NCBI RefSeq assembly: GCF_900177375.1
Contig: NZ_FWZU01000001.1
Location: 1 to 64,000 of the forward strand
DNA from: Desulfovibrio gilichinskyi
Lineage (GTDB): Bacteria > Desulfobacterota > Desulfovibrionia > Desulfovibrionales > Desulfovibrionaceae
Length of the DNA: 64,000 bases
Direction: 5' to 3'
Every line of letters starts with the position of its first letter. The first letter of the stretch is position 1. The position numbers were made by a program, and so were the translations under genes. Of the stretch, positions 13,453 to 64,000 are shown in pieces. Below the pieces are notes generated by a model, which was not told the DNA's origin, searched no databases, and was given only the letters and a program-made list of their open reading frames with translations.

Positions 13453-14152
13453 TCCTCATCTCCGCATAAGCTTTGTCCATAATATCCTGTAAATCTTCTT
13501 TTACTTTCTCTCTTTCCTTTAAGGAGTACTTGCTTGTATCGATGGGAGGGAGAGCTTTGATTTTAATTTTTTGACAGGGGTTCATTATAAGCTTGCCTTT
13601 ATATAGAACTTTTTCCGGTCCGACCATTAATATAGGAGCTATCGGTTTTTGACATTTTAAAGCCAGAATCATTCCGCCGATCTTAAAAGGCAAAAGTTTG
13701 TTCGGATTTGGATTCCGTGTTCCTTCAGGAAAGATTAATGGAGAATGTCCACTGTTTGCGACATCGACAGCATGCTGAATGTCTTTCATCCCTTTTCTGC
13801 TGTTCTCTCTATCTATTGAAATATGTTTCGCCGCAGCCATTGCATGACCGAATATCGGGAATTTAAATAAGGATTTTTTAGCTACGAATTTAAACTGCCA
13901 TGGACTTAAAAAATGGAACAGCAAAGGGATGTCGAAAAAGCTTTGGTGGTTGACCATGAAAATGTAAGTTTGCTTTTCATCAAGGGCACTGAGGTCTACA
14001 TCAAATTCGCATCCACTGTTTTTAATCATAGCCTTTCCCCAAGAGCGTTCGCACCAGTGGAAATTTTTTTGAGTTTTAGAAAAAATGATTACGAGGGAGT
14101 AAAAAATAGTCAGCGGGAAAAATAGTAAGTAGAAATATATAAGTCTTAGCAT
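13445..14152 (-). CDS. plsC: 1-acyl-sn-glycerol-3-phosphate acyltransferase (PlsC family)
   Basis: A 235-residue acyltransferase with an N-terminal membrane anchor (residues 1-24). The catalytic HX4D box is NHQSFFDIP with His69 and Asp74, and the substrate box is FPEGTRNPNP at 141-150. It makes phosphatidic acid by adding a second acyl chain to lysophosphatidic acid at the inner membrane. It is the first gene of a two-gene unit with rnj. Other members acylate different lysolipids, so the exact acceptor is inferred. Confidence 0.88.
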   Translation of the reverse strand: MLRLIYFYLLFFPLTIFYSLVIIFSKTQKNFHWCERSWGKAMIKNSGCEFDVDLSALDEKQTYIFMVNHQSFFDIPLLFHFLSPWQFKFVAKKSLFKFPIFGHAMAAAKHISIDRENSRKGMKDIQHAVDVANSGHSPLIFPEGTRNPNPNKLLPFKIGGMILALKCQKPIAPILMVGPEKVLYKGKLIMNPCQKIKIKALPPIDTSKYSLKEREKVKEDLQDIMDKAYAEMRNE

Positions 14153-14331
14153 TTTGTTATCGTTAAATATTTAGTGTTAAAAGTTTATTAAATTCAAAAA
14201 ACTACGTTTTGGAGCTTTGCGTTCTTTAACCACTAACTTGATAGTGTAATTTAGCACGGGAAACAAGAGCAGATCTTAAAAAGAAAAAGTTAGGAGTGTA
14301 AAGCCCTTGCCGTATAATGAAATAAAGGGTG

Positions 14332-53070: not shown

Positions 53071-53147
53071 GGCCCCGTAGCTCAGTCGGATAGAGCACAA
53101 GATTCCTAATCTTGGTGTCACAAGTTCGATTCTTGTCGGGGTCACCA
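53071..53147 (+). tRNA. tRNA-Arg (anticodon CCT)
   Basis: A 77-base cloverleaf with encoded CCA. Acceptor GGCCCCG pairs with CGGGGTC (one G-U). D-arm AGCTCAGTCGGATAGAGC; anticodon stem CAAGA/TCTTG with loop TTCCTAA gives CCT at 53105-53107, reading AGG (Arg); T-arm ACAAG-TTCGATT-CTTGT. Its last 47 bases are repeated exactly at 62641-62687, so it is the integration site of the island to the right. A terminator follows. Confidence 0.97.
53101..53147 (+). repeat. att site, left copy (tRNA-Arg 3' end)
   Basis: The 47 bases from the anticodon stem to CCA are identical to 62641-62687. The bases on the left side differ (a before this copy, g before the other). This is the usual footprint of tyrosine-recombinase integration into a tRNA gene that leaves the tRNA intact at one end. 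Confidence 0.93.
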
Positions 53148-53155
53148 AGAATATT

Positions 53156-53190
53156 AAGGGTTTACGTCAATATTGATGTAAACCCTTTTC
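53156..53190 (+). terminator. Terminator after tRNA-Arg
   Basis: AAGGGTTTAC pairs with GTAAACCCTT around an inner TCA/TGA, followed by TTC. The stretch 53183-53216 matches 62729-62762 after the second att copy with two mismatches in 34. Confidence 0.8.
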
Positions 53191-53218
53191 TGCGTTTTAC
53201 GGGGTTGTTTTTGGGGGA

Positions 53219-53608
53219 TTACCCAGCCACTTCCATATTCAGTATCTGGTTATCCTCGAATTCATATTCTGTAGATAGTTTCAGGCTGCGCCCGTTCTTT
53301 AGTTTCACCAGAAAGGTTTCCACATAATTCGATGAATCAGGAATTTCACTGGTTATTGAGATCGTTCTGGTCGCAGGGGAGTATATGATCTTCTGGAATC
53401 CTTTTCCTGTACTGATTTTGATTTCGTTGTCATTGGGGAGTACCTCTATGGTTTGGGATTCAGCTGCGGTTGTTACTGCTAACTCCAGAAACTGTTCTCT
53501 GATCGTGTTATGGATTACTTCTTCGATGGTTGTTGCTCCTGCGGTGATGGCTATAAGGATACAGCTCAAGACTAATGCTATTAGAATTATTGATTTTATG
53601 ATTCTCAT
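53219..53608 (-). CDS. Small secreted protein of unknown function (island left end)
   Basis: A 129-residue protein with a signal peptide (residues 1-24, ending TAGA). The mature part is acidic, beta-rich and has no Cys: ESQTIEVLPNDNEIKISTGKGF and TRTISITSEIP. I do not recognise it. It is the only minus-strand gene in the island, next to the tRNA and divergent from the eight-gene operon. GGAGAAATC upstream of the ATG is a good ribosome site. It could be an immunity or accessory protein of the adjoining system, but nothing in its sequence shows this. Confidence 0.72.
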   Translation of the reverse strand: MRIIKSIILIALVLSCILIAITAGATTIEEVIHNTIREQFLELAVTTAAESQTIEVLPNDNEIKISTGKGFQKIIYSPATRTISITSEIPDSSNYVETFLVKLKNGRSLKLSTEYEFEDNQILNMEVAG

Positions 53609-53745
53609 TTGATTTCTCCTGTGATGGTGACGTTCGGTTGATCTAAGTGAATAAATATTCCTTTATGAAGACGAAGTGTTACTATTGTATTGAGTAGAAT
53701 TTATCGAAATTTGTGGCGAATATCTAAAAATTTAACAATCAGTTA

Positions 53746-53774
53746 TTGCTCAAATTGATGTTTCTTATTATAAA
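53746..53774 (+). promoter_or_regulatory. Promoter of the island operon, apparently giving leaderless mRNA
   Basis: TTGCTC (53746-53751), 17 bases, TATAAA (53769-53774). The first ATG of the operon is at 53781, where transcription would be expected to begin, and no ribosome site precedes it. The mRNA would then start at or near its initiation codon. Confidence 0.5.
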
Positions 53775-53780
53775 TTTCAA

Positions 53781-56099
53781 ATGTACGAATACGATCAGCA
53801 TATAAAAGATATTTTGGGTGAGCAGCAGAAAGCTGTTATCTCTGTTGTTTGTGATGTCGAAGCTGACATCTATGTAGACAAAAAAATTCAAAAAAAAAAA
53901 GTTGACCATTACAAGACAGTGGCTTTGCCGTTTGGTCAGTATTTTGTTGAGGCTAAGACTGATGTTCCAAATCGATATGACAGCGCTGTCGTTACTTTGT
54001 CTCAAGAAGGGACTCATGTTTGTGAATTAAAACTTTCTGATAAGAAGTATGCTAAATTAACTATTGTTTGCGATACAGTTGCCGATTTTTACGTAGATAA
54101 AAAGCCGATAGCTATATCTAAATCTTTAGTTACTCATGAAGTTTCTCTCGGTGAGCATTTTGTTGAGGTTAAGACTTCTGATCCAGATCAGTATGAAAGT
54201 GCTATTGTCAATTTGACCCAAGAAAGTGGTCATGTCTGTGAATTCAAATTTTCAAATAAAGACTTTTGTTCTGTAACCTTTGTTTGCGATATAAAGGCTG
54301 ATTACTTTGTGGATAAAGAATTAGTCGCAAATTCTGTGGAAAGAGCATTCACTCACAAACTTCCTGTTGGTGAGCATTTTGTTGAAGTCAAATCGTATGA
54401 TCCTCCCAAGTATGATAGTAGAGTCATAAGCGTTGCCCCTGAAGGTAAGCTCGTTTGTGAGTTTTTTTTGAAGAAACAGATGCCGGGACTTTTTGTTGAA
54501 AAAGGTGTTCCTGTAAGCATTAATTTTACAGAAGATTGTTCTCTTGAACTCAATGGTGTTGATGTTGGAAATTTTGAAAAAGGTGTCTCTGAGCATTTTG
54601 CTCTGCCTGTTGGGAAAAATAGATTTAAGTTTGTCTCTGTTCATCTTGAAAATGTCTCAGAATCCATTGAATTAAATTTGAAAGACATTGGCCAAGAATT
54701 TGTTGATTCTAAGCTTGATTTAGTTGTTCAAAAACGTATTCGAGAACAGCTACAATTTTACGTAATGAAGTTAAAGGATCTTGTTGGAAGTATTAAAGGT
54801 AGATATTCGGTAGCAAAACTTCAGAAACTTATGAGTCGTCTTAGATTAGTTGCTCAGGACCGGATTTTATATTTAACCCTTGAGTCGAGAGTAAATTTAG
54901 CTATTTCAGCTGTTGATAGTGCTTTAAATGCATATTCTGCTATGGAGCCTGCTCTTGATCATGTTTTGATCTTACCAGAAAATATAACTGGCCATGACTA
55001 TAAAAAAATATGTGCTGAAATTGATGAACGAATAGAGAAATGGGAGAGAAAGAAAAGCGTTTTTTTCTCATTGGCTCAGGATGCTGAGACAAAGAGTGGT
55101 TTGGTTGAGAATGATTATGATAAATTGGAGCAAATAATTAAAGCAAAGTTATTGGGTATTGAGAGAGTCTTTGAAGAGGCTCAGGATAGGTTTGAGGGCT
55201 TAAATCTTGAATCACTATGTACAGAAATGCAGAAAGCCGCAGGGAAGATTCCGTTGACCGGCTCCGTACAGATATCTGTTGATGAGACAATGAGGGATAT
55301 TCAGAAAGCTACACATGACTTTCGTGCGTTTATGGACTTAAAATCTAGTGCTTCATCAATCAGTCCCGGTGTACGTGGATTTGATGCGATACAAATAGAC
55401 TTGAATAAAAAACTTGAAGATGTTCAAAGTAATAAAAATAATGTTTTATATTTTTGCGAGACTGCAAAAAATAAAATTATTAGCTGCAACATACAGTTAA
55501 ACGAGTTGCAAAAACTGTTAGAGGATAAAGAAAAATACCGTAGAAAAATAGTTGTAATTTTTTCCGTTGTTACTGTCTTATTCTTAGTATGTATAGGGGG
55601 CGGGATAAAACTTTACCTTGATCAAGAAGCTAGGTTTCAAAGAGCTAATAATCAAAGATCCAATAGGCAAACAGAGATTTCTGCAAAAGATGTGAAGCAA
55701 CCATCTGTAAAGAATGTTGAAAATAGAGAACCGAAAGAGCAAGCAAAAGTTGTGGAAAGTCCGTCCGTTGTTTCGCAGCAACAAATTAATATACCTGCCA
55801 AGCCACAGCTGTCTTCTCTTGAGCAAGGTAAAATATATATGAAAAAAGGTGAATATGACAAAGCTGAAAATTCTTTAAGGGGCGCGATTGAATCCTATAA
55901 GAATGCGCCAGCTAGCAAGAAGGACATATATATATGCAATACAATGGAGGCTATGTTCTATCTTGCAAAAATTCCTGGGAATGAAATGGAATTTGACCAA
56001 ATGTTGAAATACTATAGTCAGCATAGACAGGTGGTTAGGCATAATCTTCCAGGAATATATGGCGTAATTGAGCCGCTGGCACTGGGATTGGAAGAGTAA
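53781..56099 (+). CDS. Transmembrane protein with repeated PEGA-like domains and periplasmic TPR-like end
   Basis: A 772-residue protein. Three clear repeats of about 70 residues, at 19-86, 92-157 and 163-230, share VCDxxADxYVDK, LPxGEHFVEVK and YDS, and a fourth diverged copy is at 236-295 (LELNGVDVG, LPVGKNRFKF). These resemble PEGA domains. Long helices (about 310-585) may form a coiled coil. One membrane helix (about 590-612) follows KYRRK, so repeats face the cytoplasm and the C-terminus the periplasm. After a Gln/Pro-rich linker, LEQGKIYMKKGEYDKAENSLRG suggests TPRs. It could connect the ATPase encoded next to the envelope lipoproteins. Confidence 0.8.
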   Translation: MYEYDQHIKDILGEQQKAVISVVCDVEADIYVDKKIQKKKVDHYKTVALPFGQYFVEAKTDVPNRYDSAVVTLSQEGTHVCELKLSDKKYAKLTIVCDTVADFYVDKKPIAISKSLVTHEVSLGEHFVEVKTSDPDQYESAIVNLTQESGHVCEFKFSNKDFCSVTFVCDIKADYFVDKELVANSVERAFTHKLPVGEHFVEVKSYDPPKYDSRVISVAPEGKLVCEFFLKKQMPGLFVEKGVPVSINFTEDCSLELNGVDVGNFEKGVSEHFALPVGKNRFKFVSVHLENVSESIELNLKDIGQEFVDSKLDLVVQKRIREQLQFYVMKLKDLVGSIKGRYSVAKLQKLMSRLRLVAQDRILYLTLESRVNLAISAVDSALNAYSAMEPALDHVLILPENITGHDYKKICAEIDERIEKWERKKSVFFSLAQDAETKSGLVENDYDKLEQIIKAKLLGIERVFEEAQDRFEGLNLESLCTEMQKAAGKIPLTGSVQISVDETMRDIQKATHDFRAFMDLKSSASSISPGVRGFDAIQIDLNKKLEDVQSNKNNVLYFCETAKNKIISCNIQLNELQKLLEDKEKYRRKIVVIFSVVTVLFLVCIGGGIKLYLDQEARFQRANNQRSNRQTEISAKDVKQPSVKNVENREPKEQAKVVESPSVVSQQQINIPAKPQLSSLEQGKIYMKKGEYDKAENSLRGAIESYKNAPASKKDIYICNTMEAMFYLAKIPGNEMEFDQMLKYYSQHRQVVRHNLPGIYGVIEPLALGLEE

Positions 56100-56104
56100 T
56101 TGTT

Positions 56105-57817
56105 ATGAATTGTCATCCGTCAACAGATTGTTCTCGTTTAAGCTCAATTTTAAGCAATGGTCATATAGGTTTTTTTTGCAGTCGCGAGAGAACCCCCGCT
56201 TATACTAGGTTTGCTCAGCAATTGGTTGTTCAATTTATTTCTGATAATTTTGTTGAATATAGTAAATTGGAGATAGTTGTTGCTGACTACTATGATCGTG
56301 GTCGACATTTCGCTGAAATACTACCTGCTATCTCAAAGATAATAACTGACGAAAGCTTGTTGCAAGATAAAGTGCAAGAGCTTGTTAATGTATGCGATCG
56401 TCGATTCAGGGAAGATGATGTCCAAAAGGAAAAGACTTTCAGCTTTACTCTAAAGAATACATTTCTGTTTTTATCTGGCGATTGCTGTTCGATATTAGGA
56501 ACAACTGAATTTTCCCATCTCTTGCGCTATGGTCGCGAGGTGGGAATTTTTATTGTTATGGTCTTTTCTGATGTGCAGTTGTTTCATGTATATAATCAGT
56601 ACGGCGATGTGTTTTACCAGCAGGACAGTGTCCATTGGGATACGCTTTGGTCTGCTAAGCGTGATTTTAAGCGTTTTGGTGAGAAGCCAGTTGCTCTCGG
56701 GCAGATTGATCTAGATTCAGATAAGGAAATATTAAAATTCTTTACTGATAAAATTTTGGAAGAAAGAGAGAAGTATAAGGCGTCGAATACGCTAACAAAT
56801 CTACTTAAGGATGCAGAACGTCATAAGTCTGCAGTAACAGGGATTAAGGTCCCTATTGGACGTGATGAGGATGGAGAGACTTGTTATTTTGAATTAGATA
56901 AGCATCCTAAGATTCACACAATGGTTTCTGGCACAACAGGGGCAGGTAAAAGTAATTTTTTTAAAACGCTAGTGAGTAGCTGTATACATTCATATTCTCC
57001 TGATGAACTGCAACTTGTTCTAATTGATTTGAAGCAAGGTGCTGCGTTTAATCCTTTTAAGCTAGAAGAGAATATATGGATGTATTGTGATACGAATCCA
57101 GAATCAGTTCTTTTTAACGACGAGAATATAGTAATAAATGAAGAGTGCAATATTCCTCCGGTTGGTGCTGATGAAAAGGATACACCGACTAATGATAAGA
57201 TAATTTCTGGCGAAGATTTATCATCTATATTGGATAAAGTTTTAACTTCCTTTGAGAAAAATTATAAAGAAGGAATGACCGAAACAGTTGGTGAAGATAT
57301 TTCAAGTCATGAGATTTTGTCTGTATTGGATATTTTTTCAAATTTGCATATTGAATTTGAAGAAAGAATTAGATTGTTTACTAAATATTCATTCGATAAT
57401 TACCAAGATTTTCGTGAGGGATATATAGTAAATGAAGTTGGTCGTAATTTACCGAGGATTTTGATAATTATTGATGAAGTGCAAATTCTTTTTGATAAAG
57501 ATAATACGAGAGATAGTCTTTTAAAATGTGCAGGTTTACTCAGAAGATTGTTTGCCGAAGGAAGAGCTGCCGGATTTCATTTTATTCTTTCGACGCAATC
57601 TTTTGATATTAGTAGAGGGTTTACTCTTCCTGAAGCTGTTGAACAAAATAGTGGGGTTAGAATTTCTTTTAGCGCAACAGAAGATGAGGATAGTTCTGCT
57701 GTGTTAGGGCGATACAATTATTCTGCTGTGGGTTTGGATATCGGAGAGTGTATACATAATCTTGGGAAGAGAATAGAAACAAATAAGAAAATGACAGTAG
57801 CCTATTTTGATAAATAG
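56105..57817 (+). CDS. FtsK/SpoIIIE-type ATPase, apparently with a degenerate first ATPase domain
   Basis: A 570-residue soluble protein. The active domain (about 240-570) has Walker A GTTGAGKS at 276-283, LVLIDLKQGAAF as in FtsK, Walker B LIIIDEVQ with Asp457-Glu458, GRAAGFHFILSTQSFD and the late RISFSATEDEDS. An acidic insertion of about 90 residues follows LIDLKQ. The first 210 residues follow the same order without a Walker A: LEIVVADYYDRGRHFAEILPA for the DxK strand, ITDESLLQ...VNVCDRRF, TFLFLSGDC for Walker B and GREVGIFIVMVFSD for the sensor strand. Tandem FtsK domains with dead members are known in EssC/EccC of type VII secretion. No membrane segment. Confidence 0.85.
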   Translation: MNCHPSTDCSRLSSILSNGHIGFFCSRERTPAYTRFAQQLVVQFISDNFVEYSKLEIVVADYYDRGRHFAEILPAISKIITDESLLQDKVQELVNVCDRRFREDDVQKEKTFSFTLKNTFLFLSGDCCSILGTTEFSHLLRYGREVGIFIVMVFSDVQLFHVYNQYGDVFYQQDSVHWDTLWSAKRDFKRFGEKPVALGQIDLDSDKEILKFFTDKILEEREKYKASNTLTNLLKDAERHKSAVTGIKVPIGRDEDGETCYFELDKHPKIHTMVSGTTGAGKSNFFKTLVSSCIHSYSPDELQLVLIDLKQGAAFNPFKLEENIWMYCDTNPESVLFNDENIVINEECNIPPVGADEKDTPTNDKIISGEDLSSILDKVLTSFEKNYKEGMTETVGEDISSHEILSVLDIFSNLHIEFEERIRLFTKYSFDNYQDFREGYIVNEVGRNLPRILIIIDEVQILFDKDNTRDSLLKCAGLLRRLFAEGRAAGFHFILSTQSFDISRGFTLPEAVEQNSGVRISFSATEDEDSSAVLGRYNYSAVGLDIGECIHNLGKRIETNKKMTVAYFDK

Positions 57818-57833
57818 TATATGGAGGAATGTT

Positions 57834-58127
57834 ATGGCTGAAGTCGATGCAAATCTGAGGGCAATAGAAAAAGGGTATGCAAAATTTAGGGAAAAGCATG
57901 AAGAACTTGTTGCAAAACTTGATCAGTTAGAAAATGCGACTAAAGATTTAGAGAATATTAATTTAGGGGCCTTTTCTATTCAATTTAGTGATCTTTTACT
58001 GGATACAATTGGTAAGCATAAGTCTTTATTGCTTAACGCAAGGGATGGAATTGATGTGAGTATTTTAAGTTATACTGATGAAGTGAGTAGCCTGTATCGC
58101 AAAATGATGAAAATGGTAAAGGTGTAG
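57834..58127 (+). CDS. Small helical protein, length of WXG100 proteins
   Basis: 97 residues from ATG 57834 (GGAGG seven bases upstream; the frame continues back into the ATPase gene). It is all helical: AIEKGYAKFREKHEELVAKLDQLENATKDLEN forms one heptad-like helix, a short break (INLGAFSIQF) and then a second helix to the end. Size and two-helix layout match WXG100 substrates of type VII systems, but the Trp-x-Gly turn is absent; LGAF stands there. No signal peptide. Its place directly after the FtsK-like gene is what makes the idea worth testing. It might equally be a structural coiled-coil subunit. Confidence 0.75.
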   Translation: MAEVDANLRAIEKGYAKFREKHEELVAKLDQLENATKDLENINLGAFSIQFSDLLLDTIGKHKSLLLNARDGIDVSILSYTDEVSSLYRKMMKMVKV

Positions 58128-58130
58128 GGT

Positions 58131-58712
58131 ATGCGATTTATAAATTTTATAAAAAAAGCTAAGAATAGAACTTTTGATGTTGACCCACATGGAGATTCTT
58201 CTTTTAGCGGAATCAATGAAGGGAAACAAGCTTTTGATAGTATGAATGAGCGCTCAAAGAATCCAGAAGCACCATTTAAAGGGATAAACCCTAATTATCC
58301 GCCAGCGAAAGATAGTGCTTTGTTAGGTGAAAAGGTTCTGTCAGAGAAAATGAGCAATGTAAAATTTGGTTTTGAGCTTAGAGCATTAGGGGACACAATC
58401 GAGGACGCTATTACAAATTCTCTTCGAAATATTATCAAAGAAATTGATCCGAAGATATATGTCCATAGCATTGATGTTGAAAAATTTACAACTAGATTAT
58501 CTATCATAATTGACGAATTTTCCCAAACAAAGTCGGAAATGGAAAGTATACTCTCATCTACTGCACTAGGCTGGCGTGATTCAGGGCATACTGAATTAAA
58601 AACTATGGTTAAGCAATATACTAAGACAATAATTTTATTGTCAGATTCATTGCAAATTTTCAAAGAGGTTTTGGATGCTCTGAATGAGAATGTAAAAAAA
58701 ATGGATAAATGA
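58131..58712 (+). CDS. 193-residue protein with helical hairpin and W-containing turn
   Basis: The N-terminal 75 residues are polar and probably unstructured. Residues 80-193 look helical, with LGWRDSGHTELKTMVKQY at 146-163: helix, turn with Trp148, helix, which recalls the WXG turn of type VII substrates without being a match. No signal peptide or membrane helix. It starts three bases after the preceding gene and overlaps the next by four (ATGA), so it belongs to the operon. I do not recognise a family. Confidence 0.75.
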   Translation: MRFINFIKKAKNRTFDVDPHGDSSFSGINEGKQAFDSMNERSKNPEAPFKGINPNYPPAKDSALLGEKVLSEKMSNVKFGFELRALGDTIEDAITNSLRNIIKEIDPKIYVHSIDVEKFTTRLSIIIDEFSQTKSEMESILSSTALGWRDSGHTELKTMVKQYTKTIILLSDSLQIFKEVLDALNENVKKMDK

Positions 58713-59284
58713 ATGTAATGAAAATTTTTTTTCTGAAGATTATAATGGGGTTAACGTTGTGTTGCATCTGTTTCTGTTCATCTGTCTTTGCCGCAGAAGT
58801 ATCAATGAGAACAGAAACACAAAAGGGAGTCCATCCGTTTACTGCAACACAGCAAGGAATATTTGAAGGGTTATTGAGTTCTAAACTCAATGGCTTGAAT
58901 GGCGGCAAGGCAATGTCCTTCAAAAATGTGGTCCTCCTGAATAGTGCTGAAAATGATTGTAGAAGAATCCCAAATACAGAAAATATTTATGATTGTACTA
59001 CAAGTCTGACTCTTAACGTTGAAACTCAGCTTACAGATGAACGTGGTAAGTCTGTTCAGCTGCGTGTGTCAGCTATCAATAGTTCTGAGTGGACAAAAAG
59101 ATTGAAAGGAATAAATCCTCCTGTGCCGGTATCCCAGTTCAGAAAGGTAGCTGATAATATTTCTTCGACAATTGCTAAGAAAATGAAGACTGCTATTAAT
59201 CAACGTAATGCCGCCATTCAGAGGAAGAAGGAAAAACGTGCTAAGGCCTTAAAAGAGTTTCAACAAAATAATGCTTTACCGTAG
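58709..59284 (+). CDS. Secreted (periplasmic) protein of unknown function
   Basis: A 191-residue protein with a signal peptide of about 28 residues (KIFFLKIIMGLTLCCICFCS, cut near VFAAEV). The mature domain is alpha/beta: FTATQQGIFEGLLSSKLNG, then strands around CRRIPNTENIYDCTTSLTLNVETQL with two Cys that could form a disulfide, and a very basic C-terminal helix (QRKKEKRAKALKEFQ). The first half, which pairs a helix of an N-terminal type with VADNISSTIAKKM, vaguely recalls CsgG/LpoB-like folds, but this is not secure. It is translated with a 4-base overlap to the previous gene. Confidence 0.72.
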   Translation: MNVMKIFFLKIIMGLTLCCICFCSSVFAAEVSMRTETQKGVHPFTATQQGIFEGLLSSKLNGLNGGKAMSFKNVVLLNSAENDCRRIPNTENIYDCTTSLTLNVETQLTDERGKSVQLRVSAINSSEWTKRLKGINPPVPVSQFRKVADNISSTIAKKMKTAINQRNAAIQRKKEKRAKALKEFQQNNALP

Positions 59285-59317
59285 CAATATAGAAATTAAA
59301 GAATAGGAGTTTTTAGG

Positions 59318-61492
59318 ATGTTGTCGGGGAAAATGCGTAACTTATTGTTTGTTGGGGTATTAATTCTTTTTGTTGTAGGGGGATGTATTCCTCATAAATC
59401 TAAAGATTCTGGAGCATATGGTTCAGCAAAGAAAGTAGAAAAAAAAGTTTCGACTCAAGTTGCTGGAATTGCTGTATCTGATGTCAATATGAGGCAGAAT
59501 CCCGGGAAATCGGGGAAGAAGCTCGCTGCCCTTCGTAAAGGCGAAAAGGTCGTTGTTTTAGGACGAAAAGGGAATTGGTATAAGGTTAATCAGCAATCTA
59601 GCGGAAAGATTGGGTACGTTTATTATCCTTATATTGATGTTCAGTTTTCTGGAGTGGATTCGATTACTGGACAAATTATTAAGTCTACAAAAGTATACGC
59701 ACAACCCAATTTAAAAAATGCAACAAAGGTTTCTTTTCGACCTGGGAAAAAGATAACAGCTCTTGCTAAGCAGGGAGCTTTCTACACAATTAAGCTCGAC
59801 GGGAAAAACAGTTTTGTTCCAGTTAAGAGTTCTATTTTGGACTTGGAGAAAGTGACTCCCCCGTTTCATGTTGTTTATGTTGACGCGCCGGCTGCACCTG
59901 TTGCTGTAAAGTCAAAACCTAAGGGCAAACCCAAAAAGACTGTAGCTAAAAAGAAAGAGACTAAGAAATCTGTCGTAGATTCATCAGAGGAATCAAAAGA
60001 GAGTTCTTTTAGTCTTTCGAGCTTGTGGGGTGATGACGAGCCTAGATATTCAGATAAATATCGAGAAGAAAAGGAAGTCGATCCAGAAGAGATGCTTGAT
60101 ATTGTTCGGCCAAGCCTGACAGGTTATGCTGACGAATTTGCGCCTGTTCGTAGAGCATGTATGGCCAAGGATTATAGGGCAATTTGTGAGCTCAGTAATG
60201 ATTACGATGGCGAGTCTTACAAGGATTATAAAAAAGCAATAGATTTTGCTCATGAAATTGGTTGGTTGAGAACAGTTGAGCGAGCAACTCTTGCTCTGGA
60301 TAATGGTGATTTTGATAAAGCCAGCAAGCTCTTTGGCGCATCTGAAAAGCTTGCAGATGAAAGAGATGTTCGAACTGGGGATGCAGACGCATTACAAACA
60401 GGATTGTCTTTCTTGGGAACTGTTTCTGGACAGGAAGGGATTGGTGAATATGAAATCCTAGGATATGAAAGAGTCCTTTCTTTGAATTATAAGGCTCTTG
60501 CTGAAATTTTATCAGGTAAGAAAGGTGCTTATAATATTGCTAAACGTTCTATTGCTCTCCAGAACAGAGAACGTGATGAGTTTGAATCGATGATCAGGGA
60601 TTTGGAGATAAAGGAAAGAGAGAAGAAGAATAAGATAGGTGCAAACGATCCTTTGAAAGAGTTCTATTCTAAAGTCGACATGACTTTATTTGAACCCAAA
60701 AACAAAAAAGAAAGATCTGCTGTCTTACGTCAGACGTCAAATGCATTTATCAACCCATTTGGTGATTATCTCCATGGTCTTATTCTTGAGTGTGAAAGCT
60801 ACTATAAGCCATCGTTAAGAAGCAATGCAGCTATCGCTTACCGTAAAGCAGCTAAGCTTCAGCCTAAAGCAAAGAAAATGCTGTTGCAGGCAAAAAGTGA
60901 TATGGGTAAACCTGCGAAGGCTTATTCAAACAAGCGATTGGTGCATGTAATAGTGTCCGAGGGTTTTGCCCCCCAAAAGTGGACAAAAAATATAATGCTT
61001 CCTGTTACAATTCCACCTATGCAGGTGAAAACTACTGAGTTGAGGACTGTTTCGTGTGTAGCTGGTACACCGAAAGTCTCATTTAAAGGTTCACCAACTC
61101 GTTCTCTGTCTGAAATCTCCAACATCGAAGCTATCTCATTTAGGTATGATGAAGATTGCTCATTTGTGAGAACATCAAATCTTGTGTGGAAGATTGGTCA
61201 ATCCTATGTTGAGAAACAGATGAATATTTTGGTTTCAGGTCTTAGTTTTGCAAAAGAACTTTTAGCAGAGCCTGATAGTAGAGCTTGGCTTTCCTTGCCA
61301 AAAAAGGTTTATGCGACTAGGATTTTTGTAAAAAATGATACTTCAAGTGCAACGATCACCATTACAAAGCCGAATGGAAAAATTTTGACACGATCTTCGG
61401 TTAAGCTTCCTAAGGGCAATGCTCCTGTAATTATTTATGGTCGAGCAAATGATGATGGTGTTCAGCTTTATGCTTCAGCTTTTAACAAGTAG
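59318..61492 (+). CDS. Lipoprotein: two SH3b domains fused to a COG3014-like domain
   Basis: 724 residues. A lipobox (VVGGC, Cys about 23) ends the signal. SH3b domain one (about 50-108) has VNMRQNPGKSGKKLAALRKGEKV and WYKV; a second follows to about 175 (KVYAQPNLKNATKVSFRPGKKI). A Lys-rich linker (about 195-235) leads to a helical part that follows the COG3014 pattern: ALDNGDFDKASKLFGASEKL, ILGYERVLSLNYKALAEILSGK, NPFGDYLHGLILECES and AAIAYRKAAKLQPKAKK, then a beta-rich end. COG3014 proteins are lipoproteins encoded with LpoB and YcfL in many bacteria, as here. SH3b suggests binding to peptidoglycan. Confidence 0.78.
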   Translation: MLSGKMRNLLFVGVLILFVVGGCIPHKSKDSGAYGSAKKVEKKVSTQVAGIAVSDVNMRQNPGKSGKKLAALRKGEKVVVLGRKGNWYKVNQQSSGKIGYVYYPYIDVQFSGVDSITGQIIKSTKVYAQPNLKNATKVSFRPGKKITALAKQGAFYTIKLDGKNSFVPVKSSILDLEKVTPPFHVVYVDAPAAPVAVKSKPKGKPKKTVAKKKETKKSVVDSSEESKESSFSLSSLWGDDEPRYSDKYREEKEVDPEEMLDIVRPSLTGYADEFAPVRRACMAKDYRAICELSNDYDGESYKDYKKAIDFAHEIGWLRTVERATLALDNGDFDKASKLFGASEKLADERDVRTGDADALQTGLSFLGTVSGQEGIGEYEILGYERVLSLNYKALAEILSGKKGAYNIAKRSIALQNRERDEFESMIRDLEIKEREKKNKIGANDPLKEFYSKVDMTLFEPKNKKERSAVLRQTSNAFINPFGDYLHGLILECESYYKPSLRSNAAIAYRKAAKLQPKAKKMLLQAKSDMGKPAKAYSNKRLVHVIVSEGFAPQKWTKNIMLPVTIPPMQVKTTELRTVSCVAGTPKVSFKGSPTRSLSEISNIEAISFRYDEDCSFVRTSNLVWKIGQSYVEKQMNILVSGLSFAKELLAEPDSRAWLSLPKKVYATRIFVKNDTSSATITITKPNGKILTRSSVKLPKGNAPVIIYGRANDDGVQLYASAFNK

Positions 61493-61499
61493 AGGAATT

Positions 61500-61937
61500 A
61501 TGGTTACTTTGAGAGGAATAGCGGTATTTTTGCTTTTGAGCGTCTTGATGGTCTGTATGACAGGTTGCGTGATTGAGGGGAAGACGCACAGTTCAGATGT
61601 TAATACTAATTCTAACGTATACAAACTCTCTCCACGGGCAACGGTTATATATGCTGGTAAATATTTGCCAGAAGACATTACTGTTAGTGTTCCAGCGTTT
61701 GAAAAATCAGGAGCCTTAACCAAGGCCGTTTTTGTTTTGCAGAACTTGACAGATGGTAATATAGTTCTTGAATATCGTGTCGAGTGGAAAAAGGAGTCCG
61801 GGTTTCCTATGAGAATTACGGATGCATGGGATATTGTACATATTGCTCCTGCAAGTATTGCGACGTTAGCAAGTGTTGGTGACGATGCTGAAGCGTATAG
61901 TGTAATAATTAAGATTAGATATCCCGAAAACAATTAG
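61500..61937 (+). CDS. YcfL-like (DUF1425) lipoprotein
   Basis: 145 residues from ATG 61500, which has AGAGGAATT upstream; the longer frame from 61437 overlaps the previous gene and would bury the signal peptide. Lipobox VCMTGC, with Cys near residue 23. The mature domain follows the YcfL pattern: YKLSPRATVIYAGK, KAVFVLQNLTDGNIVLEYRVEWKKESGF and then a hydrophobic end. In E. coli ycfL lies next to lpoB. A secreted Ig-like fold is expected. Position between a COG3014-like and an LpoB-like gene supports the call. Confidence 0.75.
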   Translation: MVTLRGIAVFLLLSVLMVCMTGCVIEGKTHSSDVNTNSNVYKLSPRATVIYAGKYLPEDITVSVPAFEKSGALTKAVFVLQNLTDGNIVLEYRVEWKKESGFPMRITDAWDIVHIAPASIATLASVGDDAEAYSVIIKIRYPENN

Positions 61938-61945
61938 GAGCTCTC

Positions 61946-62473
61946 ATGTTTAATCGTATTTTTGGGTTAGTGCTTATTGGATTAATAGTTTTGCCTGGAT
62001 GTATTGGTAAGAGGAACTACACTCAGGGTAATGTCTCTATAGGTGAGGTTGGTACGACTAGGCATTTGGAAGCTAAGCTTACATTTTCTGATTTTTCGAA
62101 GCTTGCTAAAGATGTAACAAATAAGATGGTTGATTCAAAACGTATACAGTGGTTTGATGCAAACGATAAGCCTAAGAACCTCGTTTTATGTGTAGCTACT
62201 CCTATAAATAAAACCGATGATGAAAATTTTGAAATGGATGCTTTGCAAGATAAGATCGATGAAAGGCTTCTGCAACGAGAAATGGCTATAATAACAACAT
62301 CTCCACCTTTTGATTACATTATTCGACCAACGTTGTATGCTAATCCTCCTCAGAGAGGAGAGGGAGGAAAGTTGCAAATTCAGTATACCTTGCAGTATAA
62401 GCTTTATGACGATAAAGATCGTAAACTTGGTCAATGGTCCTCAGAGATGGTTTTGAACCGCGATCCTAGTTAG
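61946..62473 (+). CDS. LpoB-like lipoprotein
   Basis: 175 residues with lipobox VLPGC (Cys about 19). The mature part: FSKLAKDVTNKMVDS, VLCVATPINKTDDENFEMDALQDKIDERLLQ, IRPTLYANPPQRG and IQYTLQYKLYDDKDRKLGQWSSEM. LpoB, the outer-membrane activator of PBP1B in E. coli, has the same order (DL..A..M...L, I.NrT...ID...L...I...L, F..L.L.D..tg...W). A direct role on a penicillin-binding protein is not shown. It is the last gene of the operon; no strong terminator is visible between it and the second att copy at 62641, though one follows at 62702. Confidence 0.75.
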   Translation: MFNRIFGLVLIGLIVLPGCIGKRNYTQGNVSIGEVGTTRHLEAKLTFSDFSKLAKDVTNKMVDSKRIQWFDANDKPKNLVLCVATPINKTDDENFEMDALQDKIDERLLQREMAIITTSPPFDYIIRPTLYANPPQRGEGGKLQIQYTLQYKLYDDKDRKLGQWSSEMVLNRDPS

Positions 62474-62640
62474 GTTGTTGAATGTGTCATTTGGATACTA
62501 AATTTTAAATGTTGTCACCCGCAATAAAAAAGTACATTCATGTCAACCAAATGCCAACCAACTTAGAAATAAAGGTTGATATTGTTACTTTTTTCACAAA
62601 ATAAATATAATTATTTCAAGTAGTTAAATGTAAAGCATCG
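62474..62640. other. AT-rich stretch between last island gene and right att copy
   Basis: No ORF, tRNA or recombinase remnant is visible. An ordinary island would carry an integrase near one end; nothing of this kind is seen here or at the left end. Confidence 0.4.
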
Positions 62641-62687
62641 GATTCCTAATCTTGGTGTCACAAGTTCGATTCTTGTCGGGGTCACCA
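62641..62687 (+). repeat. att site, right copy (tRNA-Arg 3' fragment)
   Basis: An exact 47-base copy of 53101-53147 (anticodon stem to CCA) without the acceptor and D-arm half, so it is not a working tRNA. It marks the right end of a 9.5-kb island. The downstream stretch also resembles the post-tRNA terminator. Confidence 0.93.
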
Positions 62688-62701
62688 TATTGAATTATAT
62701 T

Positions 62702-62737
62702 AAAGGGTTAACTCATGTTTTGAGTTGACCCTTTTCT
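62702..62737 (+). terminator. Terminator after right att copy
   Basis: AAAGGGTTAACTCA pairs with TGAGTTGACCCTTT (one mismatch) followed by TC. It is analogous to the terminator at 53156 and probably the original tRNA-Arg terminator of the chromosome, or that of a further element. Confidence 0.75.
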
Positions 62738-62762
62738 GCGTTTTATGGGGTTGTTTTCGGGG

Positions 62763-63123
62763 TGCTGCCAACCGGATATGCCAACCTGTTTAGATGAGTA
62801 TTGTTATGATTGTTTGTATAGTTTTTTTGATGTGTTGACTTATGATGGGTGGGATCGGTTGACCGAATGTATTTATATGATTTAAATAGTGTACATTGTT
62901 CTTTTAGATTTCTATTTTTGAAAGTCGATTAGTTGAGGTATGGAAAGCAGTGTGAAAAATATTAGTGACAATTCCGTTGGAAGACAGATGATATATAATA
63001 CATAGTCTCGCTTCAATAATTTTTAGTTTCAAATATGATAGGGAATTGAAAATCTTAAAATAACCACTCGTAAGATTGAAAGATATGGGCTGAAGCATAA
63101 ACGATGTACGGGGAAGTAAATTA
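62763..63123. other. AT-rich non-coding region before the glycosyltransferase gene
   Basis: About 360 bases with no convincing gene; a 64-codon minus-strand frame at 62904-63098 has no ribosome site and no recognisable content. The promoter of the next gene should lie here. Confidence 0.35.
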
Positions 63124-64000
63124 ATGAAATCGAGTCAACATTTCAGTGTAGATGTTTGTGTGAACGTTTTGGGAAAACCGTATCAAACCGCACTAAGCAT
63201 TTTGTCGTTGTTAAAATACTCCGCGACACATATTTCTAAAATATATATCATATTAGAAAAAAACAACAAAGCTAGCCATGTAAAGCAGATTAAGTCATTA
63301 TTAGATCATTTAAAAGTTGATATTGTGTATTATACTCCGAAAAATTGGTACTGGGTCTATCCTCTTGATAGGCGAGGTTTTAAGCAGGAAGACATACGTG
63401 ATGGATTAAGATATCAATTCGCATTCGAAAATTCAGACTCAAAACTCATTTATGTAATGCATAATGATGTTGTTCATTATACAGATGTTTTACAAATCTA
63501 TCATAGTGCTATCAAAGGGCATATAGCTGTTGGTAATATTGGGATGTGCCATAATTGTCCTGCATTTTGGTCAAAAAAGTGCTCGAAAGACAAATATATG
63601 TCGTATCAGCCTAGAATTGATGAGTTGCGTAAAATATACAATGAAGCTGATCCTCCTAGCGGCTGGAAAGGGTTTATGTATCATCTTGAAGATTTTTGTG
63701 AAGAATTCAGAGAGAATCCATGGCCATTACCATGTTGTCGGGTCAATGAATTTTCGTGTTTAATTGACTTAGATAAATATAGAAGCACTACAACTCCGTA
63801 TGGTGACTGTCATCCTTTCGGAGCGTATGGATCATGTGGAGGATACTTGTTAGATATAGGGTGTAATTGGTTTCATGATGTGCATTTACGTGGCTTCACA
63901 TGTAAAAATATTACTCTTTCGCAATCAGAATTTATACATATAGGTGGACATAGCGCGATGTTTAGCAAGGATTTGTATTTTCAAAATGAACTGAGAGCTT
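63124..64000 (+). CDS. Glycosyltransferase-like protein (cut by window end)
   Basis: An open frame of at least 292 codons runs from ATG 63124 to the window edge without a stop; GGGGAAG lies upstream. The N-terminus, FSVDVCVNVLGKPYQTALSI followed by YSATHISKIYIILEK, looks like a GT-A glycosyltransferase start. SKLIYVMHNDVVHYTDVL, around residue 110-125, may be the DxD-like metal site with HND. It is rich in Cys and Trp. No signal peptide. It may belong to a surface-polysaccharide region or to another accessory segment beyond the island. The acceptor and donor are unknown. Confidence 0.65.
   Translation, partial: MKSSQHFSVDVCVNVLGKPYQTALSILSLLKYSATHISKIYIILEKNNKASHVKQIKSLLDHLKVDIVYYTPKNWYWVYPLDRRGFKQEDIRDGLRYQFAFENSDSKLIYVMHNDVVHYTDVLQIYHSAIKGHIAVGNIGMCHNCPAFWSKKCSKDKYMSYQPRIDELRKIYNEADPPSGWKGFMYHLEDFCEEFRENPWPLPCCRVNEFSCLIDLDKYRSTTTPYGDCHPFGAYGSCGGYLLDIGCNWFHDVHLRGFTCKNITLSQSEFIHIGGHSAMFSKDLYFQNELRA

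What the first reader, a model, noticed from the sequence alone, without database searches (positions are those of the whole stretch)
53781..62473. Candidate undescribed envelope-spanning, FtsK-ATPase-driven system of eight genes
The operon combines a cytoplasmic FtsK-type motor, a transmembrane PEGA-like/TPR protein, two small helical proteins, a secreted protein and three lipoproteins, one with SH3b domains. It covers cytoplasm, inner membrane, periplasm and outer membrane. All spacings are short or overlapping. It sits on an island, which suggests defence, competition or export. I know no named system with this set.
Basis: partly seen in the sequence, partly recalled or inferred. Interest (0 to 1): 0.78.

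Follow-up and report, generated by a model that had tools for sequence, protein, structure and literature searches.

The report
Type-VII-like secretion motor with lipoproteins
Eight genes on a small mobile island join a motor related to a protein-export machine best known from Gram-positive bacteria with three outer-membrane lipoproteins of a separate conserved cluster; the combination was seen in this genome only, and whether the two halves work together is untested.

Summary
The eight genes are real, tightly packed and co-directional. They fill a 9.5-kb island between tRNA-Arg(CCT) and a perfect 47-bp copy of its 3' end; no integrase was found inside. The ATPase (g2) is not an ordinary FtsK: profiles built without it give 151 and 126 bits for motors encoded beside WXG100 proteins, 61 for FtsK and 44 for mycobacterial EccC. 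Zhang et al. 2012 noted that class outside Gram-positives as apparent "mobile versions of T7SS". g4 ends in a WXG-like helical hairpin (suggestive only, P 0.0007-0.005); g3 gave no signal. g1 carries three predicted beta-sandwich repeats, one transmembrane helix and a periplasmic tail. g6-g8 match a conserved lipoprotein cluster (COG3014-like/DUF1425/LpoB-like) found without the motor in seven other genomes of the family. The genome searches found no second copy of the motor half, and the halves were not seen together elsewhere. Best reading: a divergent T7SS-like module, shortened to one active motor domain, coupled to an outer-membrane lipoprotein module, exporting or displaying helical proteins. 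That two unrelated cargoes merely sit in tandem is not excluded. Verdict: new variant of a known kind; function inferred.

The parts
53071..53147 (+). tRNA-Arg(CCT), insertion site of the island
   Evidence: ARAGORN
53101..53147 (+). left copy of the 47-bp repeat (3' end of the tRNA)
53219..53608 (-). g0: 129-aa secreted-looking protein; relatives lie in other islands at the same tRNA
   Evidence: hits in L047, L048, L059; weak in L064
53781..56099 (+). g1: 772 aa, N-terminal beta-sandwich repeats, coiled coil, one TM helix, periplasmic tail with a weak TPR
53829..54482 (+). three 72-73-aa repeats of g1, PEGA-like in layout, predicted beta-sandwich (pLDDT 91 for the middle one)
55548..55607 (+). 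single TM helix of g1 (about residues 590-609), positive residues before it (N-in)
   Evidence: read by eye
56105..57817 (+). g2: 570-aa FtsK-superfamily ATPase, WXG-linked/EssC-like class; one active domain, degenerate N-terminal region, no third domain
56930..56953 (+). Walker A of g2 (residues 276-283)
   Evidence: invariant columns
57834..58127 (+). g3: 97-aa helical protein (by sequence); no WXG signal
   Evidence: negative
58131..58712 (+). g4: 193-aa helical protein with a C-terminal WXG-like hairpin
58572..58574 (+). codon of W148, the only Trp of g4, in the hairpin turn (GWRDSGH)
58709..59284 (+). g5: 191-aa Sec-type secreted protein, overlaps g4 by 4 bp
   Evidence: no significant family match
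59318..61492 (+). g6: 724-aa lipoprotein, SH3_3 domain plus COG3014-like C-terminal part
61500..61937 (+). g7: lipoprotein, DUF1425 (YcfL-like)
61946..62473 (+). g8: lipoprotein, LpoB-like
62641..62687 (+). right copy of the 47-bp repeat
62702..62734 (+). terminator-like hairpin beside the right repeat, in a 66-nt stretch 79% like the one beside the tRNA

Best explanation
The operon is an island-borne, divergent type-VII-like (WXG-linked FtsK/EssC-like) module joined to an outer-membrane lipoprotein module. Shown by sequence: g2 is closest to ATPases that are encoded beside WXG100 proteins; g1 is a single-pass membrane protein with repeats on the predicted cytoplasmic side; g6-g8 match a conserved lipoprotein gene cluster. 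Suggested: g4 carries a WXG-like helical hairpin. Inferred: g1 anchors the soluble motor g2 at the inner membrane, taking the place of the membrane-embedded part of EssC/EccC; g2 recognises the g4 hairpin (perhaps paired with g3) and drives it, alone or with a partner, across the inner membrane; g5 and the SH3/LpoB-like lipoproteins g6-g8 hold or open the peptidoglycan and outer-membrane side of the path. No toxin gene was recognised in the operon, so the cargo would be g3/g4 themselves, g5-associated material, or a protein encoded elsewhere.
For: g2 class: profiles made without g2 give 150.7 bits (8 proteobacterial/plasmid/phage WXG-linked motors), 126.2 (11, mostly planctomycete/verrucomicrobial), 61.0 (18 FtsK rows of this genus) and 43.9 (4 mycobacterial EccC); the WXG-linked rows had been found with g2-based queries, which favours them somewhat. 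Best solved relative is 4nh0 at E 1.6e-19, deposited as 'Cell division FtsK/SpoIIIE' (I recall it as an EccC); YukB E 1.5e-10, EccC5 3.7e-10; FtsK 2ius 4.6e-8. NCBIfam EccCa 89.8 and EssC 80.9 bits against FtsK 30.5. Neighbours of that class: 42 of 61 motor loci have a WXG-type small protein within 3.5 kb on the same strand, 33 of them by a hit not itself in the profile; of ten such neighbours tested, three pass Pfam's WXG100 cut-off, two match below it, five do not match. g4: hhalign to the WXG profile P 0.0049, 0 of 200 shuffles as high; of 250 randomly drawn ORFs from the motor loci the 11 that outscore it are all WXG or W-x-D small neighbours; with a 39-sequence profile P 0.0021 and 0 of 150 shuffles; Pfam WXG100 on the C-terminal 93 residues E 0.15, collinear over profile 10-85 of 86; predicted hairpin H116-144/H150-191 with W148 in the turn. 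Lipoprotein half. Overlap of g4 and g5.
Against: In the same profile test FtsK (61 bits) beats mycobacterial EccC (44 bits), so g2 is not specifically close to canonical T7SS motors there, although solved-structure and NCBIfam rankings point the other way. g3 gives no WXG signal. The g4 match is weak: whole g4 shows no Pfam WXG100 match even at E 10, and against the second small-protein family it is not significant. The g4 model has mean pLDDT 59 (other models 37-49) and no WXG structure is among the 50 rows listed in either fold search. The degenerate first domain of g2 scores only 2.7 bits, just above the best of 300 shuffles (2.0), and the third domain is absent. The nearest proteobacterial motor loci carry VWA, PP2C, kinase and CARF genes and, in the L021 annotation, no evident membrane protein, so that branch may not secrete at all. 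The motor half and the lipoprotein half were never found together elsewhere, and the operon is known from one genome.
Confidence: 0.45

Rival explanations
1. Two unrelated cargo modules in tandem: a T7SS-like or WXG-linked ATPase module (g1-g5) and a copy of the COG3014-like/DUF1425/LpoB-like envelope cluster (g6-g8), joined by insertion into the same island and merely co-transcribed.
For: Each half has relatives without the other: no ORF called in 61 motor loci hits the g6, g7 or g8 profiles and none in 11 fetched loci (10 with a g6 homologue) hits the motor profile. In L145 a CsgG-family gene, not a motor, stands upstream of the same SH3-bearing g6 homologue. The widest gap in the operon, 33 bp, lies between g5 and g6. 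Islands at this tRNA hold mixed cargo in relatives.
Against: All eight genes are co-directional with gaps of 33 bp or less and no terminator-like site between g5 and g6. The secreted g5 overlaps the cytoplasmic g4, so the first half already reaches beyond the inner membrane.
Confidence: 0.3
2. An envelope-linked anti-phage or stress module: the FtsK/HerA-type ATPase acts inside the cell (on DNA or on a signalling complex) and the membrane and lipoprotein parts sense envelope damage or phage entry.
For: PADLOC models mad8 (57 bits) and SspH (49 bits) match g2. The closest proteobacterial motor loci carry kinase, PP2C, VWA, CARF-nuclease and helicase genes. The G008 island at the same tRNA carries an NTPase that looks NACHT-like and a zeta-toxin-like pair (by eye).
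Against: No nuclease, kinase, toxin or other effector was recognised in the operon. The mad8 and SspH matches cover the shared ATPase core and also appear in the four other WXG-linked motors scanned. T7SS models score higher than the defence models, though in different libraries.
Confidence: 0.15
3. A DNA-transfer apparatus of the element itself: an FtsK-like pump moving the island's own DNA.
For: FtsK superfamily; mobile island; FtsK profile gives 61 bits, more than EccC's 44.
Against: No relaxase, replication or integrase match among the nine proteins of the island that were scanned. WXG-linked motor profiles score twice as high.
Confidence: 0.05

Closest known systems
'Mobile versions of T7SS' (Zhang et al. 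2012, PMC3482391, Table 1 note 6; passages read)
   Same: EssC/YueA-like FtsK/HerA ATPase beside solo WXG proteins, patchy and mobile, in proteobacteria, planctomycetes, verrucomicrobia and others.
   Different: The paper describes three FtsK/HerA domains with only the middle one active; g2 ends after the active domain. The WXG-like protein here is divergent and follows the motor. No g6-g8 profile hit was found in the 61 motor loci examined.
T7SSb/T7SSa (EssC, EccC, EsxA)
   Same: Motor superfamily and, tentatively, a WXG-like hairpin; a separate single-pass membrane protein (compare EssB, recalled).
   Different: No FHA or transmembrane part in g2; no other T7SS component recognised by Pfam/NCBIfam among g1-g8; no LXG or other toxin recognised.
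COG3014-like / DUF1425 (YcfL) / LpoB lipoprotein cluster (COG3014 and YcfL names recalled or from the finding; no call gave them)
   Same: Gene order g6-g7-g8 and, in L145, the same SH3 plus C-terminal layout of g6.
   Different: Elsewhere seen without the ATPase half. A CsgG-family gene is upstream in L145; other secreted CsgG/LpoB-like genes (by eye) are beside it in L148 and L149.
MADS mad8, SspH, DndH, HerA of defence systems
   Same: ATPase core only.
   Different: No partner gene of these systems was matched in the operon.

Membership tests
Mobile T7SS-like modules (Zhang et al. 2012) | YueA/EssC-like FtsK-superfamily ATPase of the WXG-linked class | tested here: met
   150.7 and 126.2 bits against 61 (FtsK) and 44 (EccC) with profiles built without g2; tree puts g2 with the 51 WXG-linked/Ecc rows, apart from the 5 FtsK rows (100/100), but on a very long branch with no sister resolved
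Mobile T7SS-like modules (Zhang et al. 2012) | Three FtsK/HerA domains, only the middle one active | tested here: not met
   One active domain; a degenerate first domain only weakly supported (2.7 bits against a best shuffle of 2.0); no third domain, g2 ends at residue 570
Mobile T7SS-like modules (Zhang et al. 2012) | Solo WXG protein next to the ATPase | tested here: inconclusive
   g4 C-terminal hairpin P 0.0007-0.005, PF06013 E 0.15 below cut-off on the C-terminal piece and no match for whole g4; g3 negative
Mobile T7SS-like modules (Zhang et al. 2012) | Carried by mobile DNA | tested here: met
   tRNA-Arg island with a 47-bp perfect repeat; the 16 other genomes of the genus show only weak FtsK-like matches to g2
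Canonical T7SSb/T7SSa | Membrane-embedded multi-domain EssC/EccC | tested here: not met
   g2 has no TM helix (by eye) and 570 aa; NCBIfam EssC/EccC scores far under their cut-offs (81 of 778, 90 of 509 bits)
FtsK/SpoIIIE DNA translocase | Closest to FtsK translocases in the motor domain | tested here: not met
   61 bits against 151 for WXG-linked motors; the genome has an FtsK-like motor elsewhere, at C1:760 kb
LpoB | Pfam PF13036 / TIGR02722 | tested here: inconclusive
   g8 alone: no Pfam match, TIGR02722 E 2e-4 below cut-off; 6 of 7 rows of its alignment match PF13036, best 5e-41
DUF1425 (YcfL) | Pfam PF07233 over cut-off | tested here: met
   42.8 bits, cut-off 28.3
PEGA domain | Pfam PEGA model match | tested here: not met
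   No PEGA match for g1, its N-terminal part or its repeats (HMMER filters may drop weak hits); a beta-sandwich is predicted
Known anti-phage systems (MADS, Ssp, Dnd) | Partner genes of the system present beside the ATPase | tested here: not met
   Only g2 matches (ATPase core); the only other hit is a chance-level one of g7 to an unrelated model

The most novel reading that the evidence does not exclude
A type-VII-like secretion machine adapted to a two-membrane envelope: a soluble, shortened motor docked on a separate membrane anchor, with a co-inherited peptidoglycan- and outer-membrane-facing lipoprotein set (SH3, DUF1425, LpoB-like) that carries the cargo past the outer membrane.
Probability: 0.2. 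Interest if true: 0.85.

Novelty: new variant of a known kind. Interest (0 to 1): 0.5.

Why it matters
T7SS is textbook Gram-positive and mycobacterial. How its cargo passes an outer membrane is, as I recall, unsettled; the title and start of the abstract of PMC10597459 (seen in a listing) treat it for mycobacteria. A WXG-linked motor in a diderm, operonic with outer-membrane lipoproteins and small enough (8.7 kb) to clone whole, would give a compact test of whether such motors secrete in diderms and what the outer-membrane part is. The survey also shows the WXG-linked motor class, which I found described only in one table note of 2012, in many planctomycete and verrucomicrobial genomes. If the rival of chance tandem cargo is right, the value falls to one more island annotation.

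Tried and rejected
Close relatives of g1, g2 and g4 in viral contigs: none confirmed. g2 in plasmids and phages: 15 and 59 records, none covering 80% of it. Plasmid searches with g1, g3 and g4: no match; with g6: 2 SH3-type hits only. Motor in 395 genomes of the phylum and 347 of the order (the samples overlap): only the window's own genome at E 1e-9 and 1e-8. g1 in 347 genomes: itself and one weak hit, E 8.5e-4, coiled-coil-like.

WXG test of g3 against two small-protein families: negative. g4 against the second family: not significant. Fold searches with the g4 model listed only generic helical bundles; no WXG protein is among the 50 rows shown, which proves nothing. Repeats of g1: best matches 9k1u chain B (Foldseek E 9e-5) and 6hif chain Y (Z 10.1, rmsd 1.8 over 70), with many beta-sandwich proteins just below; not used for function. 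g5 against secreted CsgG/LpoB-like neighbours (3 sequences): no match. Solved structures for g8, g6 and the g1 repeats: nothing of use.

The tree of motor domains used 57 of the 76 rows found: I dropped 2 fragments, 4 near-identical mycobacterial rows and 13 same-genus FtsK rows before building. It leaves g2 on a very long branch, and the program warns of long branches meeting; I use it only for the split from FtsK. Comparing the first genes after the tRNA in 13 related genomes found no common occupant; 2 of 13 had matches to genes further downstream in the window's genome. An empty site was not demonstrated.

Literature searches for this class outside Gram-positives; for the lipoprotein triad. 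I read passages of PMC3482391, PMC11217815 and PMC7159879 and otherwise saw only listings; beyond PMC3482391 I saw no description of it there. Subscription papers and preprints are not held.
Full report
What is there. The window holds eight co-directional genes, 53781-62473, with gaps of 33 bp or less and one 4-bp overlap. They lie between tRNA-Arg(CCT) (53071-53147) and a perfect 47-bp copy of its 3' end at 62641-62687. The stretch after the tRNA and the stretch after the copy are also alike (66 nt, 79%), and the latter includes a 14-pair terminator-like hairpin. G+C is 0.34-0.40 inside, 0.43-0.49 in the 9 kb before it and 0.39-0.46 further upstream. Besides the operon the island holds one short gene on the other strand (g0, 53219-53608); none of these nine proteins matched an integrase. 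The 16 other genomes of the genus show only weak matches to g2 (E 2e-5 to 2e-7) of the FtsK type.

The insertion site is a hotspot. A further copy of the tRNA end lies in tandem with the tRNA in G008 (14.7 kb away), G016 (7.1 kb) and G013 (two copies, 47 and 76 kb away), and on other contigs in G003. The cargo differs: the G008 island holds an NTPase, a zeta-toxin-like pair and glycosyltransferases, the G016 island small enzyme and transporter genes (read by eye). Relatives of g0 sit in L047, L048 and L059. Integrase genes lie about 1 kb from such copies in G003 (C17) and G013 (C1), so such islands could be moved by enzymes supplied by neighbours (inference).

The motor. g2 has the FtsK_SpoIIIE domain and an intact Walker A, DE and TQ set (invariant columns). 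Its best solved relatives are 4nh0 (E 1.6e-19), YukB and EccC5, ahead of FtsK at E 5e-8 or worse for the named translocases (4n1a, deposited like 4nh0 under an FtsK/SpoIIIE name, gives 1.6e-10). Together with two plasmid loci and a gut phage contig that makes 61. Of these, 42 have a WXG-type small protein within 3.5 kb on the same strand, in 33 cases by a hit not itself used in the profile; the 12 hits counted as 'far' overlap or abut the motor reading frame. Ten of the neighbours were tested with Pfam: three pass the WXG100 cut-off, two match below it, five do not match. Profiles built without g2 assign it to this class: 150.7 and 126.2 bits against 61.0 for FtsK and 43.9 for mycobacterial EccC. 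Two cautions: the WXG-linked rows were themselves found with g2-based queries, and FtsK beats EccC in this test, so g2 is a relative of the WXG-linked class rather than of canonical T7SS motors in particular. A tree agrees on the split from FtsK but cannot place g2 further.

This class is in print. Zhang et al. 2012 (PMC3482391; [quoted passage not shown] g2 differs: it stops right after the active domain, and its N-terminal 230 residues resemble the degenerate first domain only weakly (2.7 bits, best shuffle of 300 at 2.0). I therefore call it a variant, not a member.

The small proteins. g4 has a single tryptophan (W148), in GWRDSGH, which aligns with the WRDQEH turn of the WXG neighbours. 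hhalign gives P 0.0049 to the 12-sequence profile and 0.0021 to a 39-sequence one; the C-terminal piece alone gives 0.0017 and 0.0007. No shuffle reached its score (0 of 200 and 0 of 150), and the 11 of 250 randomly drawn ORFs that outscore it are WXG or W-x-D neighbours, several of them members of the profile. Pfam's WXG100 model gives E 0.15 on the C-terminal 93 residues, not significant but collinear over almost its whole length; whole g4 gives no WXG100 match. The predicted structure, without an alignment and with mean pLDDT 59, has helices 116-144 and 150-191 with W148 in the turn between them. With two proteins and two profiles tried, this is suggestive only. g3 is negative in every test.

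The membrane protein. g1 shows no signal peptide by eye, three repeats of 72-73 residues (42-46% identical to the middle one), a coiled-coil stretch, one hydrophobic helix near residues 590-609 preceded by positive residues, and a C-terminal tail with a weak TPR. That puts the repeats in the cytoplasm (inference). The middle repeat is predicted as a beta-sandwich at pLDDT 91, best matching 9k1u chain B and 6hif chain Y among many beta-sandwich folds. The layout recalls PEGA domains, but no PEGA model matched.

The lipoprotein half. A search with g6 matched 33 of 347 genomes of the order. In 15 other genomes of the genus the hits cover mainly the N-terminal SH3 region; seven other genomes of the family match the C-terminal part at E below 1e-16, three more weakly, and seven show SH3-type hits only. 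Of the 11 loci fetched (ten with a g6 homologue, one with the weak g1 hit), g7 homologues lie beside the g6 homologue in six and g8 homologues in four, with weak g8 hits in three more; three of the loci are cut by contig ends. Six of seven rows of the g8 alignment match Pfam LpoB, the window's own does not. In L145 the g6 homologue has the same SH3 plus C-terminal layout and a CsgG-family gene upstream. No significant relative of g1-g5 stands beside any of the g6 homologues, and no g6-g8 profile hits the ORFs called in the 61 motor loci.

How it may work. A soluble EssC-like motor (g2) anchored by g1, with a WXG-like protein (g4, perhaps with g3) as substrate or adaptor, exporting helical proteins, and with g5-g8 on the periplasmic and outer-membrane side. 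Shown: motor class, gene order, lipoprotein family, island. Suggested: WXG-like hairpin in g4. Inferred: anchoring, export, and use of the lipoproteins by the motor. The chief rival is two cargoes in tandem: it explains why the halves occur apart, but not the gene packing and the g4-g5 overlap. A defence reading has support from the neighbourhoods of some relatives, but no effector was recognised in the operon.

Limits. The eight-gene set is known from one genome. No metagenome scan was available.

Noticed in passing
window 53071-62734; L047, L048, L050, L059: tRNA-Arg(CCT) is a hotspot in this genus: islands with different cargo end in a copy of the tRNA 3' end. No integrase was recognised in the window's island, while integrase genes lie about 1 kb from such copies in G003 and G013. 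The islands may be moved in trans.
   Followed up: partly
window 53219-53608 (-); L047:11180-11562 and 14031-14285, L048:3493-3870, L059:6628-7011: g0, a 129-aa secreted-looking protein without a Pfam or NCBIfam match, recurs (63-90% identical over the matched parts) in other islands at the same tRNA, twice in one of them.
   Followed up: partly
L020, L021, L022, L065-L122: WXG100-linked FtsK/EssC-like motors appear in many planctomycetes and verrucomicrobia, often as small WXG protein, coiled-coil protein of about 190 aa, second small W-x-D protein, then a motor of about 1300 aa; function unknown.
   Followed up: partly
L021, L068, L072, L074, L085: A conserved proteobacterial cluster joins such a motor and a WXG protein with VWA, PP2C, kinase, CARF-nuclease and helicase genes (annotated in L021, similar ORFs in the others) and no evident membrane protein: possibly a cytosolic, non-secretory use of the WXG/FtsK pair.
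   Followed up: partly
window 62688-64000 and L023:1124-2406: Right after the island lie a glycosyltransferase-like gene and a short ORF (DPLFNLIYAYTRKQAVED) resembling ORFs in the G008 and G016 islands, perhaps a relic of an earlier insertion (by eye).
   Followed up: no
G001-G007, G009-G016: 15 of the 16 other genomes of the genus have a protein of about 600 aa resembling mainly the N-terminal SH3 region of g6; G008 and (apart from g6 itself) the window's genome showed none.
   Followed up: no
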